Part shown: positions 52,507 to 63,231 of the stretch, piece after piece | Layout of the letters: each line of letters opens with the position of its first letter | How positions within the stretch are numbered: position 1 is the stretch's first letter | Assembly (NCBI RefSeq): GCF_003258605.2 | Contig: NZ_CP031264.1 | Location: 1,054,001 to 1,118,000, forward strand | Direction: 5' to 3' | Source of the DNA: Peterkaempfera bronchialis | Lineage (GTDB): Bacteria; Actinomycetota; Actinomycetes; Streptomycetales; Streptomycetaceae | Length of the DNA: 64,000 bases | Notes under the pieces: model-generated | What the model was told of the DNA's origin: nothing | The model's database searches: none | The model's input: the letters and a program-made list of their open reading frames with translations, nothing else | Translations under genes and position numbers: made by a program

Positions 52507-53907
52507 TCAGCCGAGGTACTGGCAGGTGGCGCGCGCCAGATGGCGGCCGTGTCCGGCCCGGCCGAGGTAGCGGCCGCCGTCCACGATGACGGTGCCCCGG
52601 GAGAGCACGGTGCGGGCCCGGCCGGTGACCTGCCTGCCCTCGTAGGGCGAGTAGTCGACGTTCATATGGTGGGTGGCGGCGGAGAGGGTCTGCTCGGCGG
52701 CGGGGTCGTAGACGACGAGGTCGGCGTCGGAGCCGGGGGCGATGGTGCCCTTGCGGGGGTACAGGCCGAACATCCGGGCCGGGGTGGCGCAGGCGATGTC
52801 GATCCAGCGGCGGCGGGAGATCCGGCCCTCGACCACGGCCTGGTGGAGCAGGTCCATCCGGCTCTCCACCCCGGGCAGGCCGTTGGGGATCTTGGAGAAG
52901 TCGCCACGGCCGAGCTCCTTCTGCCCGGCGAAGCAGAAGGGGCAGTGGTCGGTGGAGACCACCTGGAGGTCGCCGGTGCGCAGACCCTTCCACAGCTCGG
53001 CCTGGTGCTCCCGGGGCCGCAGCGGGGTGGAGCAGACGTACTTGGCGCCCTCGAAGCCGGGCTCGGCGAGGTTGTCGGTGGAGAGGAAGAGGTACTGGGG
53101 GCAGGTCTCGCCGAAGACGGGGAGGCCCTGGCGGCGGGCGGTGGCCAGCTCGGCGACGGCGGAGGCGGCGGAGACATGGACCACATAGAGCGGCGCCCCG
53201 GCGACCCGGGCGAGCGCGATGGCCCGGTGGGTGGCCTCGGCCTCCAGCACCTCGCGGCGGACCTCGCCGTGGTACCGGGGGTCGGTCTGCCCGGCGGCGA
53301 GCGCCTGCTCCACCAGGACGTCGATGGCGATGCCGTTCTCCGCGTGCATCATGATCAGCCCGCCGTTGGCGGCGCCCCGCTGCATGGCCCGCAGGATGCG
53401 TCCGTCGTCGCTGTAGAAGACGCCGGGGTAGGCCATGAAGAGCTTGAAGGAGGTGACACCCTCCGCTACCAGGGCGTCCATCTCCTTGAGGGAGTCCTCG
53501 CGGACGTCGGAGAGGATCATATGGAAGCCGTAGTCGATGGCGCAGTTGCCCTCGGCCTTGGCGTGCCAGGCGTCCAGTCCCTCGCGGAGCGAGCCGCCCA
53601 CCGACTGGATGGCGAAGTCCACGATGGTGGTGGTGCCGCCCCAGGCTGCGGCCCGGGTACCGGTCTCGAAGGTGTCGGAGGCATAGGTGCCGCCGAAGGG
53701 CATCTCCATATGGGTGTGGGCGTCCACGCCCCCCGGGATCACATAGTGGCCGGTGGCGTCGATCTCGGTGTCGGCGGTCCAGCCGGCGGCCACCGTGCTG
53801 CCGCTCGCGGCGAGGGCGACGACCTGCTCGCCCTCGATCAGCACATCGGCCTTGACCTCCTCGGCGGCGGTGATGACGAGTCCGCCGCGAATGACGGTGC
53901 GGGTCAC
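52507..53907 (-). CDS. Dihydropyrimidinase / D-hydantoinase
   Basis: 466 residues; GTG 53907 overlaps the aminotransferase stop by 4 bp. Amidohydrolase barrel with metal ligands H-T-H (about 64-66), carbamylated Lys in S-F-K-L-F-M-A-Y, H in M-M-H-A-E-N, H in V-V-H-V-S, and D in S-T-D-H-C-P-F. Hydrolyses 5,6-dihydropyrimidines to N-carbamyl-beta-amino acids, the second step of reductive pyrimidine breakdown. Cytoplasmic. Confidence 0.94.
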   Translation of the reverse strand: MTRTVIRGGLVITAAEEVKADVLIEGEQVVALAASGSTVAAGWTADTEIDATGHYVIPGGVDAHTHMEMPFGGTYASDTFETGTRAAAWGGTTTIVDFAIQSVGGSLREGLDAWHAKAEGNCAIDYGFHMILSDVREDSLKEMDALVAEGVTSFKLFMAYPGVFYSDDGRILRAMQRGAANGGLIMMHAENGIAIDVLVEQALAAGQTDPRYHGEVRREVLEAEATHRAIALARVAGAPLYVVHVSAASAVAELATARRQGLPVFGETCPQYLFLSTDNLAEPGFEGAKYVCSTPLRPREHQAELWKGLRTGDLQVVSTDHCPFCFAGQKELGRGDFSKIPNGLPGVESRMDLLHQAVVEGRISRRRWIDIACATPARMFGLYPRKGTIAPGSDADLVVYDPAAEQTLSAATHHMNVDYSPYEGRQVTGRARTVLSRGTVIVDGGRYLGRAGHGRHLARATCQYLG

Positions 53908-55361
53908 TGGCCCTGCTCCTTTCCGCCCACGGTGTGCTGGGCCTGACGGAGTGCCTGGACGAGGAGGCCGGCGCCCTGCTCGGCCTCGGCCGGGGTGAGC
54001 GAGAGCGGCGGCGCGATGCGCAGCGCATTGCCCTGCCGTCCGCCCTTGCCGATGAGGACGCCCAGCTCACGGGCGTACTCCAGGGTGGCCGTGGCGGCCT
54101 GCGGGGAGGGGCTGCCGTCGCGTTCCACCAGTTCCACGCCGATCATCAGCCCTCGGCCGCGCACCTCCCGGACGATGGGCAGCTCCTCGGCGGCGGAGCG
54201 CAGCCGGTTGAGCAGCAGCGCTCCGGTGGCGCGGGCGTTGCCCTGGAGGTCGTGCTCCCGCAGGTACCGCAGGTTGGCGAGGGCGCCGGCGGTGGTGATC
54301 GGGCTGCCGCCGAAGGTGGAGATGGAGTTGGCGCCCAGGCAGTCCATCACCTCGGCGCGGGCGACGACGCCGCCCATGGAGAGGCCGTTGCCGATGCCCT
54401 TGGCGAAGGTCAGCAGGTCGGGCGGCCCGGCGGCGCCATGGGCCTGCCAGCCCCAGAAGTGGTCGCCGGTACGGCCCCAGCCGGTCTGCACCTCGTCGGT
54501 GATCCACAGGATGCCGTGCCGGTCCAGCACCTCCTTGAAGGCGGCGTAGAGGCCGTCCGGGCCGGAGGTGAAGCCGCCGACGCCCTGGATCGGTTCGGCG
54601 ATCAGCGCGGCGACGGTACCCTCGGCCTGACCGAGTACGTCCTCCAGGTCGGCGACGCAGGCGGCGGTGAAGTCCTCGTCGGAGAGGTGCGCAAAGGGGC
54701 CCCGGGTGCGGACCCCGCCGTGGACGTAGAGGGTCTGCAACGGGGAGAGGCTGGTGGGCGACCAGGAGGTGTTGCCGGTGATGCCCACGGTGCTGAAGGA
54801 GCGGCCGTGGTAGCTGTTGCGCATCGCCAGCACCTGGTTGGACCGCCGGAACGCGGTCGCCAGCAGCAGCGCGGCGTCATTGGCCTCGGTGCCGGAGGTG
54901 GTGAAGAAGACCTTGGCGTCGGGGATGCCGGAGAGTTCGGCGATCTGCTCGGCCAGCTCCACCATGGGCGTGGAGAGGTAGAGCGTGGAGGTGTGCAGGA
55001 TCCGCCCGGCCTGCTCCGCGACGGCCTTGGTGACCTCGGGCAGGGCATGGGCGGTCATGGTGGTGAGGATGCCGCCGAAGAAGTCCAGGTAGCGGCGGCC
55101 CTCGGCGTCCCAGACATGGCGGCCCTCGCCGTGGGTGAGCTCGATCGGCTCCCGGTAGTAGGTCGCCAGCCAGGAGGGGGTGACCGCGCGGTGGCGGGCC
55201 AGCAGGGCGCGGTGCGGGCCTGCGGGCGGGGGGTGGGCGGCGTCGGGGCCGGCGGTGTGCGGGTCGGCGGGGTGCGGGTCGGCGGTGTGGGGGTCGGCGG
55301 TGTGGGGGTCGGCGGTGTGGGGGCTGGTGGCGTTCATACGGCTCGGCTGCCCCTTCGTCAT
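53904..55361 (-). CDS. Class III aminotransferase (beta-alanine/4-aminobutyrate type)
   Basis: 485 residues with ATG 55361, which overlaps the nitrilase-family stop (ATGA); ATG 55337 is the alternative. PLP-fold type I: T-T-S-G-T-E-A-N-D-A, Y-H-G-R-S, T-D-E-V-Q-T-G-W-G-R-T-G and the PLP Lys in T-F-A-K-G-I-G-N-G. The product probably transaminates beta-alanine from ureidopropionase. Residues about 14-45 are a His-Asp-Pro repeat extension (H-T-A-D-P) with no counterpart in the family and encoded by 15-bp tandem DNA (55251-55330). Confidence 0.93.
   Translation of the reverse strand: MTKGQPSRMNATSPHTADPHTADPHTADPHPADPHTAGPDAAHPPPAGPHRALLARHRAVTPSWLATYYREPIELTHGEGRHVWDAEGRRYLDFFGGILTTMTAHALPEVTKAVAEQAGRILHTSTLYLSTPMVELAEQIAELSGIPDAKVFFTTSGTEANDAALLLATAFRRSNQVLAMRNSYHGRSFSTVGITGNTSWSPTSLSPLQTLYVHGGVRTRGPFAHLSDEDFTAACVADLEDVLGQAEGTVAALIAEPIQGVGGFTSGPDGLYAAFKEVLDRHGILWITDEVQTGWGRTGDHFWGWQAHGAAGPPDLLTFAKGIGNGLSMGGVVARAEVMDCLGANSISTFGGSPITTAGALANLRYLREHDLQGNARATGALLLNRLRSAAEELPIVREVRGRGLMIGVELVERDGSPSPQAATATLEYARELGVLIGKGGRQGNALRIAPPLSLTPAEAEQGAGLLVQALRQAQHTVGGKEQGQ
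55251..55330 (-). repeat. 15-bp tandem repeats encoding H-T-A-D-P in the aminotransferase N-terminus
   Basis: About five copies of a 15-bp unit, read as H-T-A-D-P or variants. Copy number changes keep the frame. Confidence 0.8.
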
Positions 55362-56200
55362 GCCTCGGTGAGCGGCCCGTACGCGTCGGGCCGGCGGTCG
55401 CGGTAGAAGGCCCAGCCCTGGCGGACCTCCTGGATCAGGTCGAGGTCCAGGTCGCGGACGACCAGCTCCTCGTCCTTGTCGGAGGCCACCTCGCCGACGA
55501 ACCGGCCACGCGGGTCCACGAAGTAGGAGGAGCCGTAGAAGTCGTTGTCGCCGTACTCCTCGACGCCGACCCGGTTGATGGCGGCGATGAAGTACTCGTT
55601 GGCGACGGCGGCGGCGGGCTGCTCCAGCTGCCACAGGTACTGGGAGAGGGAGCGGCTGGTGGCGGAGGGGTTGTACACGATCTCGGCACCGGCCAGGCCC
55701 AGGGCACGCCACCCCTCGGGGAAGTGCCGGTCGTAGCAGATGTAGACGCCGACCCTGCCGACGGCGGTCTCGAAGACCGGCCAGCCGAGGTTGCCGGGCC
55801 TGAAGTAGAACTTCTCCCAGAACCCCTTGACCTGAGGGATGTGGTGCTTGCGGTACTTGCCCAGGTACGAGCCGTCGGCGTCGATGACGGCGGCGGTGTT
55901 GTAGCAGAAGCCCGACTGCTCGATCTCGTACACCGGCACCACCAGGACCAGGGAGAGCTCCTTGGCGAGCGCCTGCATCCGCACCACGGTCGGGCCGTCC
56001 GGGACGGGCTCGGCCCACCGGTAGTGCTCCTCGTCCTGCACCTGGCAGAAGTAGGGCGCGTTGAAGACCTCCTGGAAGCCCATGATGCGGGCCCCCTGTG
56101 CGGCGGCCTCCCGGGCGTACCGCTCATGCGTATCGATCATGGAATTGCGGTCGCCCGTCCACTTGGTCTGGACAAGGGCGGCGCGGACGATCCTGGACAC
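55358..56200 (-). CDS. Beta-ureidopropionase-type carbon-nitrogen hydrolase
   Basis: 280 residues; GTG 56200. Nitrilase superfamily with the Glu-Lys-Cys triad Glu44 (F-Q-E), Lys118 (Y-R-K-H-H) and Cys155 (V-Y-I-C-Y-D-R-H-F-P-E). Members with this neighbourhood cleave N-carbamyl-beta-alanine to beta-alanine, CO2 and ammonia. First gene of the pyrimidine catabolic set; a candidate operator palindrome sits 74 bp upstream. Confidence 0.93.
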   Translation of the reverse strand: MSRIVRAALVQTKWTGDRNSMIDTHERYAREAAAQGARIMGFQEVFNAPYFCQVQDEEHYRWAEPVPDGPTVVRMQALAKELSLVLVVPVYEIEQSGFCYNTAAVIDADGSYLGKYRKHHIPQVKGFWEKFYFRPGNLGWPVFETAVGRVGVYICYDRHFPEGWRALGLAGAEIVYNPSATSRSLSQYLWQLEQPAAAVANEYFIAAINRVGVEEYGDNDFYGSSYFVDPRGRFVGEVASDKDEELVVRDLDLDLIQEVRQGWAFYRDRRPDAYGPLTEA

Positions 56201-57705: not shown

Positions 57706-57860
57706 TGTTGCGTAAAGCCGCAGGTGGCGGATGGTGTGGCCGGTTTCCGCCCATCCGCCCGGCTTGAGGGGCCGTCGCACGTTTCGAAAGAGGGCCAGAA
57801 CAGCCAACCTGAGTGGTCCATGTCCCACGTGTTGTCATGCTCTGGACCCCTTCCTAATCT

Positions 57861-57874
57861 TGGGAGCACTCCCA
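57861..57874. promoter_or_regulatory. CebR-type operator TGGGAGCACTCCCA
   Basis: Matches the Streptomyces CebR consensus TGGGAGCGCTCCCA at 13 of 14 positions, 130 bp upstream of the glucuronoyl esterase start. CebR represses cellulolytic genes until cello-oligosaccharide is present. Confidence 0.75.
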
Positions 57875-58003
57875 ACCTCTTTGGCACCTCTGCCAGGCAC
57901 GATCTGCGACCCCCGACTGGCTGGTACCGGCCGGTGCCTGACCGCATGTCGACCGGGCGGGGTCCGTTCCCGTCGACCGCGCGTCTTCCTCTGGAGGTCC
58001 CCC

Positions 58004-59836
58004 ATGCACTTTCTTCGGTATCGATATCGGCCCCAGGTGTGGGTAGCCACAGCCCTGGTGGCCGTGGTGAGCCTGGCAACCCCTCTTCTCGCCCCGCAGG
58101 CGGGTGCCGCCGACAGATCTGTCGCCGCCGCGCTGGCGGGGTCCGCCGTCGAAAACGACGGCGCCGACTGTGCCGTCTCCAACGGCTCTTCAGCGTCCAC
58201 CTCCATGCTTCCCGACCCCTTCAAGAAGCTGAACGGCACGCGGATCTCCACCAAGTCCGACTGGCGGTGCCGCCGGGCTGAGATCAAGGATCTGGCGGAG
58301 AAGTCCATCTATGGTCCGAAGCCCGCGAAGCCTGCCAGCGTCACGGGAACGGTCTCGTCCAGCAACATCACGGTGAATGTGACGGACCAGGGGAAGAGCA
58401 GCAGCTTCTCGGCGACCGTCAGCCTGCCGAGTGGTTCCGGTCCTTTCCCGGCCATCATCGTCCTGGGCGGGCTCGGCGCGGACACGGCCACCATCAAGGC
58501 AGCCGGTGTCGCCATCATCAGCTACGACCCCTACACGGTCGGGCGTGAGGGCACGGCGCGGAACAACAAGCAGGGCGCCTTCTACAGCATCTACGGCCCC
58601 ACCAGCAGCACAGGGCTGCTGATGGCCTGGTCCTGGGGCGTGAGCCGGATCATCGACGTCATCCAGCAGTCGGGCGGCAACGTCCTCAAGGCGGATGCGA
58701 CCGGCGTCACCGGATGCTCGCGGTTCGGCAAGGGCGCCATCGTGGCCGGCGCGTTCGACCAGCGCGTCGCGCTGACCATGCCGATCGAGTCGGGTTCCGG
58801 CGGTGTTCCGATCCTCCGAGGGATTCCCGGAGAGAACGGCGCCCAGCCGCTGAGCAGCGCCTACACGGAGCAGCCGTGGCTGGGCGACGCGTTCAACTCC
58901 TACACGGGCAACCCGAACGCGCTGCCGGTGGACACCCACGAGGTCGTGGCCATGGTCGCGCCGCGAGGTCTCTTCATCATGGAGAACCCTGCCGTCGACT
59001 GGCTGGCCGCCAAGTCGGGAAGCGTGGCGGCCCTGGGTGGAGCCGAGGTCTACAAGGCGCTCGGCGTGGCGAGCAACATCACCTACTGGTCCGACGTCCA
59101 GGACGGGACCCACTGCGCTGTCCGGCCCGAGTGGAAGACCCCGCTGCAGCAGAACATCCAGAAGTTCCTGCTGGGCACGGGCAACGGCTCCGGTGTGATC
59201 AGGATCGCCCCCAGCAAGTCCGGCAACCTGGCCTCGTGGCGGGACTGGCAGACTCCGACCCTGAGCGACGACGGTGGCAGCACCACCGGAGGTAGCACGG
59301 CAGGCACCACGGCCGGCACCACCGCGGGCACGACCAGCGGCACCTCGTCCGGTACGACCAGCGGCACCTCCGCAGGCACCACGGCCGGCACGACCAGCGG
59401 CACCTCCGCCGGTACGACCAGCGGCACCACGGCCGGCACGACCAGCGGCACCACCGCCGGTACGACCGCAGGCACGACCAGCGGCACCACGGCCGGCACC
59501 ACCGGAGGCAGCACGGGCGGCACCGGCACCAACGGCACCTGCACCGCCACCTACCAGACCATCAGCAGCTGGCCCGGCGGACTCCAGGGCGAGGTGTCGG
59601 TCCGCAACAACGGCACCAGCACGCTCAACAGCTGGACCGTCGGTATGACCCTGGCCTCCGGCCAGACCATCAGCAGCCTCTGGAACGGCGTGAACAGCGG
59701 GACCAGCGGATCCATCACCGTGCGAAACAGCCCCTACAACGGCACCATCACGGCCAACGGCACCACCACCTTCGGCTGGACCGCCACCGGCAGCTCCGCC
59801 GCCGCGCCCAGCAACATCACCTGCACCAGCGCCTGA
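58004..59836 (+). CDS. Secreted CE15 glucuronoyl esterase with CBM2-like module
   Basis: 610 residues; ATG 58004 with GGAGG seven bases upstream. Signal peptide about 1-36. Catalytic alpha/beta hydrolase domain about 40-415 with the CE15 triad Ser239 in G-C-S-R-F-G-K, Glu262 in P-I-E-S-G-S-G and His370 in D-G-T-H-C. It would cleave ester links between glucuronoxylan and lignin. A Gly/Ser/Thr linker (about 425-510, G-T-T-S and G-T-T-A repeats) leads to a family 2-type carbohydrate-binding domain with terminal Cys pair (about 512-610). Regulatory boxes of CebR and CGAAAG type lie upstream. Followed by a strong terminator. Confidence 0.94.
   Translation: MHFLRYRYRPQVWVATALVAVVSLATPLLAPQAGAADRSVAAALAGSAVENDGADCAVSNGSSASTSMLPDPFKKLNGTRISTKSDWRCRRAEIKDLAEKSIYGPKPAKPASVTGTVSSSNITVNVTDQGKSSSFSATVSLPSGSGPFPAIIVLGGLGADTATIKAAGVAIISYDPYTVGREGTARNNKQGAFYSIYGPTSSTGLLMAWSWGVSRIIDVIQQSGGNVLKADATGVTGCSRFGKGAIVAGAFDQRVALTMPIESGSGGVPILRGIPGENGAQPLSSAYTEQPWLGDAFNSYTGNPNALPVDTHEVVAMVAPRGLFIMENPAVDWLAAKSGSVAALGGAEVYKALGVASNITYWSDVQDGTHCAVRPEWKTPLQQNIQKFLLGTGNGSGVIRIAPSKSGNLASWRDWQTPTLSDDGGSTTGGSTAGTTAGTTAGTTSGTSSGTTSGTSAGTTAGTTSGTSAGTTSGTTAGTTSGTTAGTTAGTTSGTTAGTTGGSTGGTGTNGTCTATYQTISSWPGGLQGEVSVRNNGTSTLNSWTVGMTLASGQTISSLWNGVNSGTSGSITVRNSPYNGTITANGTTTFGWTATGSSAAAPSNITCTSA
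59278..59520 (+). repeat. 12-bp-type repeats encoding the Gly/Ser/Thr linker of the esterase
   Basis: Irregular tandem units such as GGCACCACGGCC and GGTACGACCAGC encode G-T-T-[AS] repeats. Linker length can drift without frameshift. Confidence 0.75.
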
Positions 59837-60058: not shown

Positions 60059-60307
60059 ATGGCAGAGAACCGGAACCGCGATTCGCACCTCACCCTGGTC
60101 GCCCCTGCGACGGTGTCCGCAGGGGGCGGCGCCCTCCGGCGCGCGGGCGTCGGCTTCCCGCTCCCCCGCCGCCATCGTCGGCTGCTCGCGACCACCGGCA
60201 CCACGGCGGCGGTGCTGCTGGGCGCCCTCTCCGCCGGGACGGCCCTGGAGAGCCTGCACGGCAGCCCGGCCGACGCCTCGGCGGCGGCCCCGGTCACCGC
60301 CCGCTGA
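60059..60307 (+). CDS. Small membrane protein, function unknown
   Basis: 82 residues from ATG 60059 (GGAAGG about nine bases upstream). GC-rich third positions support coding. One membrane segment near residues 46-64 (T-A-A-V-L-L-G-A-L-S-A-G) after a basic stretch P-R-R-H-R-R. Ends 8 bp before the stop of the JetA/JetB fusion, which is convergent. It occupies the place where jetC would follow in a complete Wadjet operon. Confidence 0.55.
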   Translation: MAENRNRDSHLTLVAPATVSAGGGALRRAGVGFPLPRRHRRLLATTGTTAAVLLGALSAGTALESLHGSPADASAAAPVTAR

Positions 60308-60315
60308 CTCGGGGA

Positions 60316-61983
60316 TCAGCCCAGGTCGGCCAGGATCAGCTGCGGGGTCCGGCGGGCATGGCGGCCCGGCCGTCCCTCCTCGGTGTCCGCCGGGGGCGCA
60401 TAGCGGGCAGCCGGGGCCAGCAGCACCCAGCCGGAGGTGGCGGCGCCGCGCGCCCCGCGCACATCGGTGGCCGTACGCGCCCCGGCCTCGGGACTCCGCT
60501 CGGCCCGCTCCGTGTCGGCGCGGACCGGACCGGCCGGCGCCATCAGGTGCATCCGGTGCAGCAGGTCCAGGACGTCGCGGCGGAGCGCCGACCGGTCGCT
60601 GAGGTACCCGGCCTGCCAGCCCGCCCGGCCGCCGTACTCGTCGGCGATGTCGCCGAGCGCCCCGTCGATGGCCGCGTCCGGCACCGGCACCCCGATCACC
60701 GGTCCCACCGCCGTCCGGGAGACGGGGTCGCCCGGCACCGGACGCAACTGCTCCACCAGCCGCTCCGCCAGCAGCAGCGCCGCCCGCGCGGGTGAGCCCG
60801 CGCCGGGCGGCTCCAGGTCGGAGAGTTCGTCGGCCGGGTCCAGCAGCGCCACGCCCTCGGCCCGGATCTCGACCTCCAGGCCGAGGAAGTCGGCGAAGGA
60901 CTCCCCCTCGCGGCGCTGCCGGGTACGCAGCCAGCCGCGCTCGCGGTCGGTCAGCTCGTCCAGCAGCACCACGGGTGTCTCGGCGAGCCGCCGCCGCACA
61001 TAGATCCGCTCCCCGCCCGGCCCCGGGTCGGCGGCGCGGCGCACCAGGTCCGCCCCGTCCCGGCTGCCGGCCAGCGGGCCGGCCACCAGCAGCCGGGCCA
61101 CGGCGTGGTCCACCACGGTCTCGCCGTCCCGCTCGACCATGATCTGACGATCGGTCAGCGCTGCCAGGGCGTCGGCCAGCTGAGGATCGGCGACCGCTTC
61201 GGGCTCCAGGCCCGCCCCGGCCGCAGCTTCCCGGATGGCCTCCCGGACGGCTTCGCCCAGCTCGGCCGACGGCAGCCGGGCGGGGACGTCCGGCAGCACC
61301 GAGAGGGCCAGCGCCAGGCAGGCGTAGGAGCGGGGGGTGAACAGCGCACCATCGCCGGGGCGGCGGAGGCCGCGTCCGCAGCCGCTGCCCAGCCCCGCCT
61401 TGAAGAGCCGGGCGCCGGTGTCGTCCACCAGCAGCCGGTAGCCGAGGAACCGTCCGAACCGCAGGGCCAGCGCCTCCGCGTGGCGGCGTATCTGCGGCAG
61501 ACTGCCCGCCCATGGACCGGCGGCGGTGATCAGCGGGTGGGCCAGCAGCAGCCTGGCCGCCGCCCGCCGCTCCGCGCTCTCCGAGTCGTCCCGGCCGCCG
61601 CCCGCCGCCGGGCGGAGCGGCCGGGCGTGGCGGGGGTTGCGGGCTGCCGTCCCGGCCCGCTGCGGACTGGGCACGGGGAGGTGCGCGGCCCGGCCGCGCG
61701 GGCTGCGGGCCGCGCCGTCGCGCAGCGCCGCCGGGACGGGGGCGGGGGCGGTCGGGCCGTGCCACCAGCTGGTGTGGGCGGGCACGGCGGTACCGGGGCT
61801 GTCCGGGGCGATGCCCAGGTGCCGGGCGCCGTACAGGCCGAACGCTGCGGCGAACAGGTCGTGCGCGCCCTCGGGGTCGGCCACCTCGAACCAGCGGGCG
61901 AGCCGCCGCAGGTCCTCCGGCGTGGTCTCGCTCTCCAGCCCGGTCGGCTGCATCACGTCCCCCGCCTGCCCGTACTCGTCCAT
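60316..61983 (-). CDS. Wadjet remnant: JetA C-terminal scrap fused to JetB (DUF2398)
   Basis: 555 residues. Residues about 17-90 match the C-terminal tail of JetA (DUF2397) with L-R-R-L-A-R-W-F, A-F-G-L-Y-G-A-R-H-L and T-S-W-W; residues about 135-550 match JetB (DUF2398/TIGR02678) with R-R-A-A-A-R-L-L-L-A-H-P-L-I, G-Y-R-L-L-V-D, F-T-P-R-S-Y-A-C-L-A-L and D-R-E-R-G-W-L. The join looks like a frameshift or deletion. JetB is a kleisin-like partner in the Wadjet type II anti-plasmid machine (JetA-D); the condensin-like JetC and the nuclease JetD are absent here, so an active system is not expected. Family assignment from recalled conserved text. Confidence 0.72.
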   Translation of the reverse strand: MDEYGQAGDVMQPTGLESETTPEDLRRLARWFEVADPEGAHDLFAAAFGLYGARHLGIAPDSPGTAVPAHTSWWHGPTAPAPVPAALRDGAARSPRGRAAHLPVPSPQRAGTAARNPRHARPLRPAAGGGRDDSESAERRAAARLLLAHPLITAAGPWAGSLPQIRRHAEALALRFGRFLGYRLLVDDTGARLFKAGLGSGCGRGLRRPGDGALFTPRSYACLALALSVLPDVPARLPSAELGEAVREAIREAAAGAGLEPEAVADPQLADALAALTDRQIMVERDGETVVDHAVARLLVAGPLAGSRDGADLVRRAADPGPGGERIYVRRRLAETPVVLLDELTDRERGWLRTRQRREGESFADFLGLEVEIRAEGVALLDPADELSDLEPPGAGSPARAALLLAERLVEQLRPVPGDPVSRTAVGPVIGVPVPDAAIDGALGDIADEYGGRAGWQAGYLSDRSALRRDVLDLLHRMHLMAPAGPVRADTERAERSPEAGARTATDVRGARGAATSGWVLLAPAARYAPPADTEEGRPGRHARRTPQLILADLG

Positions 61984-62089
61984 CGCGGGTCAGCCTAGGG
62001 GCAATGACGGTGACTTAGCGACCTCCGGCGGGGGCGGCCGGAGCCTGCTCCGCAGGCCGGCGGGCGGTGCCCGGCCGCAGCCGCCCGCC

Positions 62090-62395
62090 GTCAGCCGCGC
62101 TGCGCGCGGGCGAGGGAGGCATCCACCTCATCGCGGCGGGCCAGCGAGGGCTGCGCAGCCGCACGCGGGTGACGGGCGCAGCCCGGCATAGCCGAGACGC
62201 CGAAGGCCGACCGTCAGCCGCGCTGCGCGCGGGCGAGGAAGGCATCCACCTCATCGCGGCGGGCCAGCGAAGGCTGCGCAGCCGCACACGGGTGGCGGGC
62301 CGAGCCCGGCCGCAGCCGCCCGCCGTCAGCCGCGCTGCGCGCGGGCGAGGAAGGCGTCCACCTCATCGCGGCGGGCCAGCGAAGGCTGGGCGCCC
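62090..62395 (-). repeat. Three copies of the rbsK 3' end in tandem
   Basis: The sequence beginning GTCAGCCGCGCTGCGCGCGG occurs at 62090, 62213 and 62325 (spacings 123 and 112 bp). The third is the true end of rbsK. The first two each repeat the last codons (R-R-D-E-V-D-A-F-L-A-R) including a stop. Between the copies are divergent GC-rich linkers; a further short element C-C-C-G-G-C-C-G-C-A-G precedes copies 1 and 3. Covers the 342-bp gap between the JetA/JetB fusion and rbsK. Confidence 0.85.
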
Positions 62396-63231
62396 GGGCG
62401 GGTGGTGCTGATGGCGGCGGCGGCGCAGGCCCAGCGGGCGGCCTGTTCGAGGGTGCTGCCCTCGGCGAGTGCGACGGCGAGCGCGCCGCAGAAGGAGTCG
62501 CCGGCCGCCGTGGTGTCCACGGGCCGGACGGTGAAGGCCGGGATGTGCAGCTGGGCGGTGCCTTCGAGGAGCAGCACCCCGTCGGCGCCGAGGGTGACGA
62601 TCACGGCGCCCATGCCGGTCAGCTTGCGGGCGGCGGCGGCCACGTCGTCGAGTGTCGCGGGTACGGAGGTGCCGGTGAGGGCGGCCAGCTCCGTGCGGTT
62701 GGGGACCAGCACATCCACCCGGGGCGGCGGGACGGCGCCGGTGACGGCGGGGGCCGGGTTGTAGACCACGGTGCCGCCGGCCAGGCGTGCGGCCGCGTGG
62801 TTGGCCTCGTCCGGGACCTCCTGCTGGAGGACGGTGACCCGGGCTCGCCGCAGCAGGTCGGCGGCGGCCTCGCAGTCGGCGGCGGAGAGGCGGGAGTTGG
62901 CGCCGGGGCTGACGACGATGGCGTTCTCGCCTGCCGGGTCGACGGAGATCAGCGCGCGGCCGGTGGGTACGCCGGGCGTGCGGACGATGTGCGTGGTCTC
63001 CACGCCCTCGCTGCGGGCCGCGCCGAGCATGATGTCGGCCGCGTCGTCGTCGCCGACCCGGCCGACGAAGGAGACCTGCCCTCCGAGCCGGGCTGCGGCG
63101 ACCGCCTGGTTGGCGCCCTTGCCGCCGGGGTGCTGGGCGATGTCCCCGCCGAGCACGGTCTCGCCGGGCACCGGGTGCTTGGGTACCGGGGTGACAAGGT
63201 CCAGGTTGAGGCTTCCGACGACTGCGATCAC
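62326..63231 (-). CDS. rbsK: Ribokinase
   Basis: 301 residues from GTG 63231 with GGAGG about seven bases upstream; GTGA overlap with the upstream regulator gene. PfkB fold: V-V-G-S-L-N-L-D, G-G-K-G-A-N-Q-A, and the anion hole D-T-T-A-A-G-D-S-F with the catalytic Asp. Phosphorylates ribose to ribose-5-phosphate in the cytoplasm. Its C-terminus (R-R-D-E-V-D-A-F-L-A-R) is copied twice downstream. Confidence 0.94.
   Translation of the reverse strand: MIAVVGSLNLDLVTPVPKHPVPGETVLGGDIAQHPGGKGANQAVAAARLGGQVSFVGRVGDDDAADIMLGAARSEGVETTHIVRTPGVPTGRALISVDPAGENAIVVSPGANSRLSAADCEAAADLLRRARVTVLQQEVPDEANHAAARLAGGTVVYNPAPAVTGAVPPPRVDVLVPNRTELAALTGTSVPATLDDVAAAARKLTGMGAVIVTLGADGVLLLEGTAQLHIPAFTVRPVDTTAAGDSFCGALAVALAEGSTLEQAARWACAAAAISTTRPGAQPSLARRDEVDAFLARAQRG

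What the first reader, a model, noticed from the sequence alone, without database searches (positions are those of the whole stretch)
60316..61983. Decayed Wadjet type II locus: JetA tail fused in frame to JetB, JetC and JetD gone
The protein joins a JetA-like C-terminus (A-F-G-L-Y-G-A-R-H-L, S-W-W) to a nearly complete JetB-like DUF2398 body. In a normal operon these are separate adjacent genes followed by the SMC-like jetC and the TOPRIM-type jetD. Here convergent plus-strand genes follow at once. It is either a relic of an anti-plasmid island or a JetB reused alone.
Basis: partly seen in the sequence, partly recalled or inferred. Interest (0 to 1): 0.72.

Follow-up and report, generated by a model that had tools for sequence, protein, structure and literature searches.

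The report
Conserved leftover of a Wadjet operon
A gene that looks born from a deletion inside an anti-plasmid "Wadjet" machine, fusing a scrap of one subunit to a whole second subunit, has been kept by a whole group of soil bacteria without the machine's motor or nuclease, which suggests it has taken on a new job.

Summary
The ORF is real: 555 aa, a JetA-derived segment (DUF2397 positions 301-397 of 483) joined in frame to a complete JetB (DUF2398 1-361 of 363). The JetA part is the middle of that protein, not its tail. No jetC or jetD lies nearby or elsewhere in the window's genome.

It is not decaying. The same fusion is in 3 of 3 genomes of the window's genus, and 61 of 61 sampled genomes of the Kitasatospora genus match it, 56 in one checked open frame. 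It shows purifying selection, forms one clade (97/96) and has its own invariant residues. Streptomyces sp. SCUT-3 carries a broken jetA-jetB-jetC remnant beside the same xth-like gene, so the fusion probably arose by deletion inside a resident type II Wadjet operon.

A small membrane-type protein (54-90 aa) is encoded convergently next to it; in a 61-genome family sample its strong matches fall in exactly the 12 genomes with the fusion.

Best reading: an exapted KITE protein freed from its SMC motor. Function is inferred; structure predictions were too weak to help.

The parts
60316..61983 (-). fused JetA-middle/JetB gene, 555 aa plus stop
   Evidence: orthologues
61918..61983 (-). N-terminal tail (residues 1-22), starting MDEYGQ (M[DE]xxEY-like in most relatives); no JetA match
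61621..61917 (-). JetA-derived middle segment (residues 23-121), with FGLYGARHLG and SWWHGP
61558..61620 (-). variable linker (residues 122-142)
60397..61557 (-). JetB/DUF2398 body (residues 143-529); tandem winged-helix KITE fold expected from the family
   Evidence: fold inferred, models weak
60319..60396 (-). C-terminal tail (residues 530-555) with a GRH[SA]R motif shared by most relatives
61992..61998 (-). CTAGGCT, -10-like element ending 8 nt before the ATG; fits a leaderless transcript (inference)
60059..60307 (+). 82-aa protein with RHRR followed by one hydrophobic stretch, convergent with the fusion; conserved neighbour

Best explanation
A type II Wadjet operon sat near an xth-like (exodeoxyribonuclease III) gene in an ancestor of this lineage. 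A deletion removed jetC, jetD and both ends of jetA and left, in frame, the middle of the kleisin JetA fused to the KITE subunit JetB. The product cannot build a Wadjet machine: no ATPase motor, no nuclease, and the kleisin parts expected to grip the SMC neck and cap are gone. I propose that the kept JetA stretch is the one that JetB grips, so that it now docks in cis and makes a self-contained tandem winged-helix protein. This has been exapted as a chromosomal DNA- or protein-binding factor, probably together with the small membrane-anchored protein encoded convergently beside it. Shown: fusion, conservation, selection, single clade, absence of jetC/jetD, same-site remnant in SCUT-3, co-occurrence with the small gene. 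Inferred: the deletion route, cis docking, winged-helix function, partnership with the small protein.
For: Fusion domains. Same fusion in 3 of 3 genomes of the genus. In the Kitasatospora genus 61 of 61 genomes match and 56 of 61 are in one open frame. No jetC/jetD beside any of the 22 fused loci scanned. Of 12 fused genomes, 9 have no jetC or jetD over cut-off and 3 have both elsewhere. JetB dN/dS 0.18-0.41 in 10 pairs, third codon positions changing about 2 to 5 times as often as first or second. Fused JetBs form one clade 97/96, SCUT-3 sister 89/82. SCUT-3: jetA, jetB and head-less jetC pieces next to the xth-like gene, no jetD. Of 144 columns invariant in 8 separate JetBs, 51 are kept, 65 partly kept and 28 lost in 19 fused sequences; 39 columns are invariant only in the fused form. 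Promoter-like element in 48 of 61 loci. Small gene strongly matched in exactly the 12 fused genomes of 61. Kleisin logic: PMC7617805 and PMC7055376 (passages and one section).
Against: No functional data. Structure models are weak (mean pLDDT 48.7 and 56.3), so cis docking is untested. The SCUT-3 placement is only 89/82 on a long branch, and only one genome of its genus is held. The small gene and the fusion are restricted to the same two genera, so their co-occurrence may be shared ancestry only. The KITE dimer was reported not to bind DNA in one JetABC structure (PMC10586767, passages), which weakens the DNA-binding part. One Kitasatospora copy (G111) has its two parts in different frames, and one copy in the window's genus (G002) has its conserved ATG out of frame.
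Confidence: 0.6

Rival explanations
1. It is still a defence component: a stand-alone adaptor or inhibitor that modulates other Wadjet systems or incoming Wadjet-bearing elements, for example as a self-capped decoy of JetB.
For: Both parts come from Wadjet; 3 of 12 fused genomes hold jetC and jetD elsewhere, one of them (G040, L057) in an operon of the closely related clade.
Against: 9 of 12 fused genomes have no jetC or jetD over cut-off, yet the gene is matched in every Kitasatospora genome sampled; defence genes are rarely so stably inherited (general knowledge).
Confidence: 0.2
2. A subunit of another SMC complex: the fused KITE-kleisin piece associates with the chromosomal SMC of the host.
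For: KITE proteins normally serve SMC complexes (PMC10586767, PMC7055376, passages).
Against: The JetA segment lacks the N-terminal and C-terminal parts that in kleisins bind SMC neck and cap (PMC7617805, passages).
Confidence: 0.1
3. A decaying relic that happens to be open in this genome.
For: jetC and jetD are gone; SCUT-3 shows real decay at the same site.
Against: 61 of 61 Kitasatospora genomes match, 56 in one open frame; dN/dS well below 1 for JetB; conserved start and promoter-like element.
Confidence: 0.05

Closest known systems
Type II Wadjet (JetA2/JetB2/JetC/JetD), e.g. Neobacillus vireti Wadjet-II JetABC, PDB 9qe0/9qe1
   Same: JetB body and a middle piece of JetA are homologous (weak profile hits to 9qe0 JetA 312-390 E 0.017 and JetB E 0.12).
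   Different: One fused protein; JetA ends, JetC motor and JetD nuclease absent; different conservation pattern.
MAGE proteins (derived from the KITE subunit Nse3 of Smc5/6)
   Same: Same kind of evolutionary story: a KITE subunit used outside its SMC complex (PMC7055376, section 21 read).
   Different: Eukaryotic, arose by duplication, not fused to a kleisin piece (last point recalled); no family relation claimed.
Orphan ScpB-like proteins of archaea
   Same: KITE proteins without a working kleisin partner, proposed to act on DNA (PMC7055376, section 21).
   Different: ScpB family, separate gene, ScpA and Smc still present in the cell.
OapA_N motif (PF08525), for the small neighbour
   Same: 11 of 15 small proteins match weakly, best E 7.8e-4.
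   Different: The small proteins end after the hydrophobic stretch and a short tail; the window's own member has no match.

Membership tests
Wadjet type II system | complete JetA (kleisin) | tested here: not met
   only DUF2397 positions 301-397 of 483
Wadjet type II system | JetB (KITE) present | tested here: met
   DUF2398 1-361/363, E 1e-54
Wadjet type II system | JetC SMC-like ATPase | tested here: not met
   no TIGR02680 match over cut-off in the genome; best 22.4 bits vs 462.85
Wadjet type II system | JetD nuclease | tested here: not met
   no TIGR02679 match in the genome
DUF2398/JetB protein family | score over Pfam gathering threshold | tested here: met
   186.5 vs 26.9 bits
DUF2398/JetB protein family | NCBIfam TIGR02678 curated cut-off | tested here: not met
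   86.1 vs 124.65 bits
DUF2397/JetA protein family | score over Pfam gathering threshold | tested here: met
   59.2 vs 28.5 bits, partial coverage
DUF2397/JetA protein family | NCBIfam TIGR02677 curated cut-off | tested here: not met
   36.8 vs 165.85 bits
KITE proteins | tandem winged-helix fold | tested here: inconclusive
   JetB of 9qe0 ranks first by VIA-align for both models (Z 7.4, rmsd 17.0, 182 aligned; Z 7.7, rmsd 16.9, 183 aligned) but tied with unrelated winged helices; Foldseek has nothing at E <= 0.001
KITE proteins | binds a kleisin segment | not testable with these tools
   needs a structure or a binding assay
OapA_N (small neighbour) | Pfam motif match | tested here: inconclusive
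   11 of 15 members at E <= 0.1, best 7.8e-4; none for the window's copy

The most novel reading that the evidence does not exclude
A bacterial counterpart of the MAGE story: an SMC accessory (KITE) subunit, locked to the stump of its own kleisin, has escaped its DNA-extruding machine and become a core protein of a whole bacterial genus and of a neighbouring genus. It forms a two-part module with a small membrane-anchored protein, tethering DNA or a protein partner to the membrane.
Probability: 0.3. Interest if true: 0.85.

Novelty: new variant of a known kind. Interest (0 to 1): 0.6.

Why it matters
Immune systems are usually seen as gained and lost. This would be a clear case of one being dismantled and a fragment kept as a core gene. 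It also gives a natural, minimal KITE-kleisin construct with which to ask what KITE subunits do without an SMC motor, a question raised in the literature seen (PMC7055376, section 21). Defence-annotation models for JetA2 and JetB2 match the fused proteins (19 of 19 members), so naive gene-level calls could report Wadjet parts across Kitasatospora.

Tried and rejected
Decay was tested by frame, selection and distribution and rejected for this lineage. G044's apparent frame change is an N-run; G061 and G113 also have N-runs, and G089 and G093 are cut by contig ends. A class-wide sample of 60 genomes gave 7 with a match at E <= 1e-20; only in the window's own genome does one match span JetA segment and JetB. 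A viral contig scan found no relative.

Structure: AlphaFold2 on the whole protein (pLDDT 48.7) and on the JetB part alone (56.3), 11 rows each; Foldseek gave nothing at E <= 0.001. I draw no mechanism from these models.

Papers: no paper in the library holds DUF2397, DUF2398, TIGR02677 or TIGR02678, "9QE0", Wadjet + type II + Kitasatospora, or Kitasatospora + kleisin. A search for Wadjet with exaptation, fusion or pseudogene words listed 12 of 3,150 papers, none with Wadjet, so it settles little; Wadjet + orphan + incomplete gave 8 papers, seen as a listing only. That the fusion is undescribed rests on these searches only, and the library lacks most subscription journals. PMC12287153 was seen in passages only and not used for the argument.

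Full report
What is there. The minus-strand ORF 60316-61983 encodes 555 aa without a stop. Residues 143-529 match DUF2398 (JetB) over its whole length (E 1e-54) and residues 23-121 match DUF2397 (JetA) positions 301-397 of 483 (E 4.4e-16); PADLOC's JetB2 and JetA2 models agree. The chimera therefore holds a middle piece of JetA and a complete JetB. Aligned with JetAs from complete operons, the kept piece runs from about DLLRLAxWF through AAFGLYGARHLG and SWWxGP to RGRAA. Everything after it in complete JetAs, a stretch that looks like a winged-helix domain by its helix and beta-wing pattern (my reading), is missing, as are the N-terminal parts.

No machine around it. Separate jetA-jetB-jetC-jetD sets were found in 7 loci (L054-L060: six in other genera and one, L057, in a Kitasatospora genome, where the jetC matches fall in two pieces; L061 ends inside jetC at its contig end), but none beside the 22 fused loci scanned. 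Genome-wide, jetC (TIGR02680) and jetD (TIGR02679) exceed their cut-offs in 3 of 12 fused genomes (G035, G040, G052), at other places, and in none of the other 9, including the window's genome.

Conserved, not decaying. The fusion is in 3 of 3 genomes of the window's genus, counting the window's own. In a family sample of 61 genomes, 29 have some match; 12 are the fused form (3 of the window's genus, 9 of 9 of genus g14) and the other 17 are separate, distant or broken JetB/JetA matches. Genus g14 is Kitasatospora by its named members: 9 of 10 named loci from the GTDB contig collection, among them K. aureofaciens, K. purpeofusca and K. indigofera, are identical over 900 nt to g14 loci. A sample of 61 genomes of that genus matches in 61 of 61. 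I checked frames: 56 of 61 carry the JetA segment and JetB in one open frame; two are cut by contig ends, two by N-runs, and one (G111) has the two parts in different frames. Of the 21 loci first compared with the window, 20 are in one frame, and the twenty-first (G044) has an N-run. In G002 the conserved ATG is out of frame with the rest; this may be an assembly error or another start.

Selection. In ten pairs, Nei-Gojobori dN/dS of the JetB part is 0.18-0.41 and of the whole gene 0.29-0.42. For the 50-70 codon JetA part it is 0.19-0.59 in nine pairs and 1.31 in one with dS 0.05. Neighbouring genes give 0.09-0.83. Substitutions at third codon positions of JetB are about 2 to 5 times those at first or second positions. 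Of 144 columns invariant in 8 separate JetBs, 51 are kept in the 19 fused sequences, 65 partly kept and 28 lost, and 39 further columns are invariant (>= 95%) only in the fused set. Of the 28 lost columns 20 lie at residues 208-288 of the window protein; of the 39 new ones 25 lie at 364-483. Loss of old and gain of new constraints is what a change of function would leave (inference).

Origin. A tree of 41 JetB sequences puts the 20 fused ones in one clade (97/96), with the JetB of Streptomyces sp. SCUT-3 as sister (89/82, long branch), and the other JetBs, those of complete operons among them, outside (the fused copies of G002 and G044 were left out because of the start and N-run problems). 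In SCUT-3 the locus holds jetA and jetB in pieces in different frames, jetC pieces covering only about positions 253-914 of 1356 (no ATPase head), and no jetD in the genome. It lies next to a gene 70-75% identical to the xth-like gene that lies upstream of the fusion in Kitasatospora, in the same orientation (the ExoIII name rests on my reading of the sequence, no family search was run). Two Kitasatospora genomes (L050, L051) and two genomes of the window's genus (L043, L044) share a sterol-desaturase-like gene beside the fusion (name by my reading). So one chromosomal site and one fusion event is the simplest account; the deletion itself is inferred.

Expression. In 48 of 61 loci with the JetA segment (64 loci scanned) a TA[GCA]NCT element lies 5-11 nt before an in-frame ATG; three more have it before an out-of-frame ATG. 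Its distance suits a leaderless transcript, common in actinobacteria (general knowledge). I ran no chance estimate for this count.

A partner. Convergent with the fusion lies a small protein (54-90 aa by my choice of starts) with an F-P-L-P-x-R-H-R-R block followed by a hydrophobic stretch. It was found in 69 of 81 loci (a redundant set; 4 of the 12 misses had under 65 nt of downstream sequence), with 8-328 bp between the stop codons in the 19 loci measured. In the 61-genome family sample a profile of it matches strongly (E <= 7.2e-18) in exactly the 12 fused genomes and in none of the other 49, apart from three marginal hits (E 4e-4 to 9e-4) in G041, G050 and G053; SCUT-3 has no match. In G040 it lies about 4 kb from the fusion on the same contig; in G060 it is on another contig, the fusion there ending at a contig end. 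Both genes may simply be shared by descent, so a functional link is a lead, not a result.

How it may work. [quoted passage not shown] The fusion kept only a middle stretch and the KITE. I infer that this stretch sits in the KITE's own groove. KITE subunits have been reused before: Nse3 gave rise to the MAGE family, and archaeal ScpB-like orphans were proposed to act on DNA (PMC7055376, section 21). Against simple DNA binding, the KITE dimer was not part of the DNA contact in one JetABC structure (PMC10586767, passages). Wadjet is common in actinobacteria, 42% of genomes in one survey (PMC10482375, passages), so raw material is plentiful; the word Kitasatospora does not occur in that paper's main text.

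Verdict. Partly confirmed observation; origin right, decay wrong. A conserved, probably exapted, Wadjet-derived KITE fusion with a possible membrane partner. Function unproven.

Noticed in passing
window 60059-60307: 82-aa membrane-type protein gene convergent with the fusion; lineage-specific small family with no firm Pfam match.
   Followed up: yes
window 62069-62388: Tandem repeat, 123-bp unit, 2.8 copies, that looks like repeated copies of the 3' end of the neighbouring ribokinase-like gene (62326-63231).
   Followed up: partly
L062 7500-13200 (Streptomyces sp. SCUT-3): Broken jetA-jetB-jetC remnant without ATPase heads or jetD beside the xth-like gene.
   Followed up: yes
L057, L064, L066 (genomes G040, G035, G052): jetC and jetD over cut-off at another place in three genomes that also hold the fusion.
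   Followed up: partly
window 57731-59836: Glucuronoyl-esterase-like protein with a CBM2 domain and a repetitive Thr/Gly-rich linker (repeats 59280-59524).
   Followed up: no
window 52507-56200: Minus-strand cluster of a hydantoinase-like gene, class III aminotransferase and carbon-nitrogen hydrolase, possibly pyrimidine catabolism (first name by my reading, the other two).
   Followed up: no
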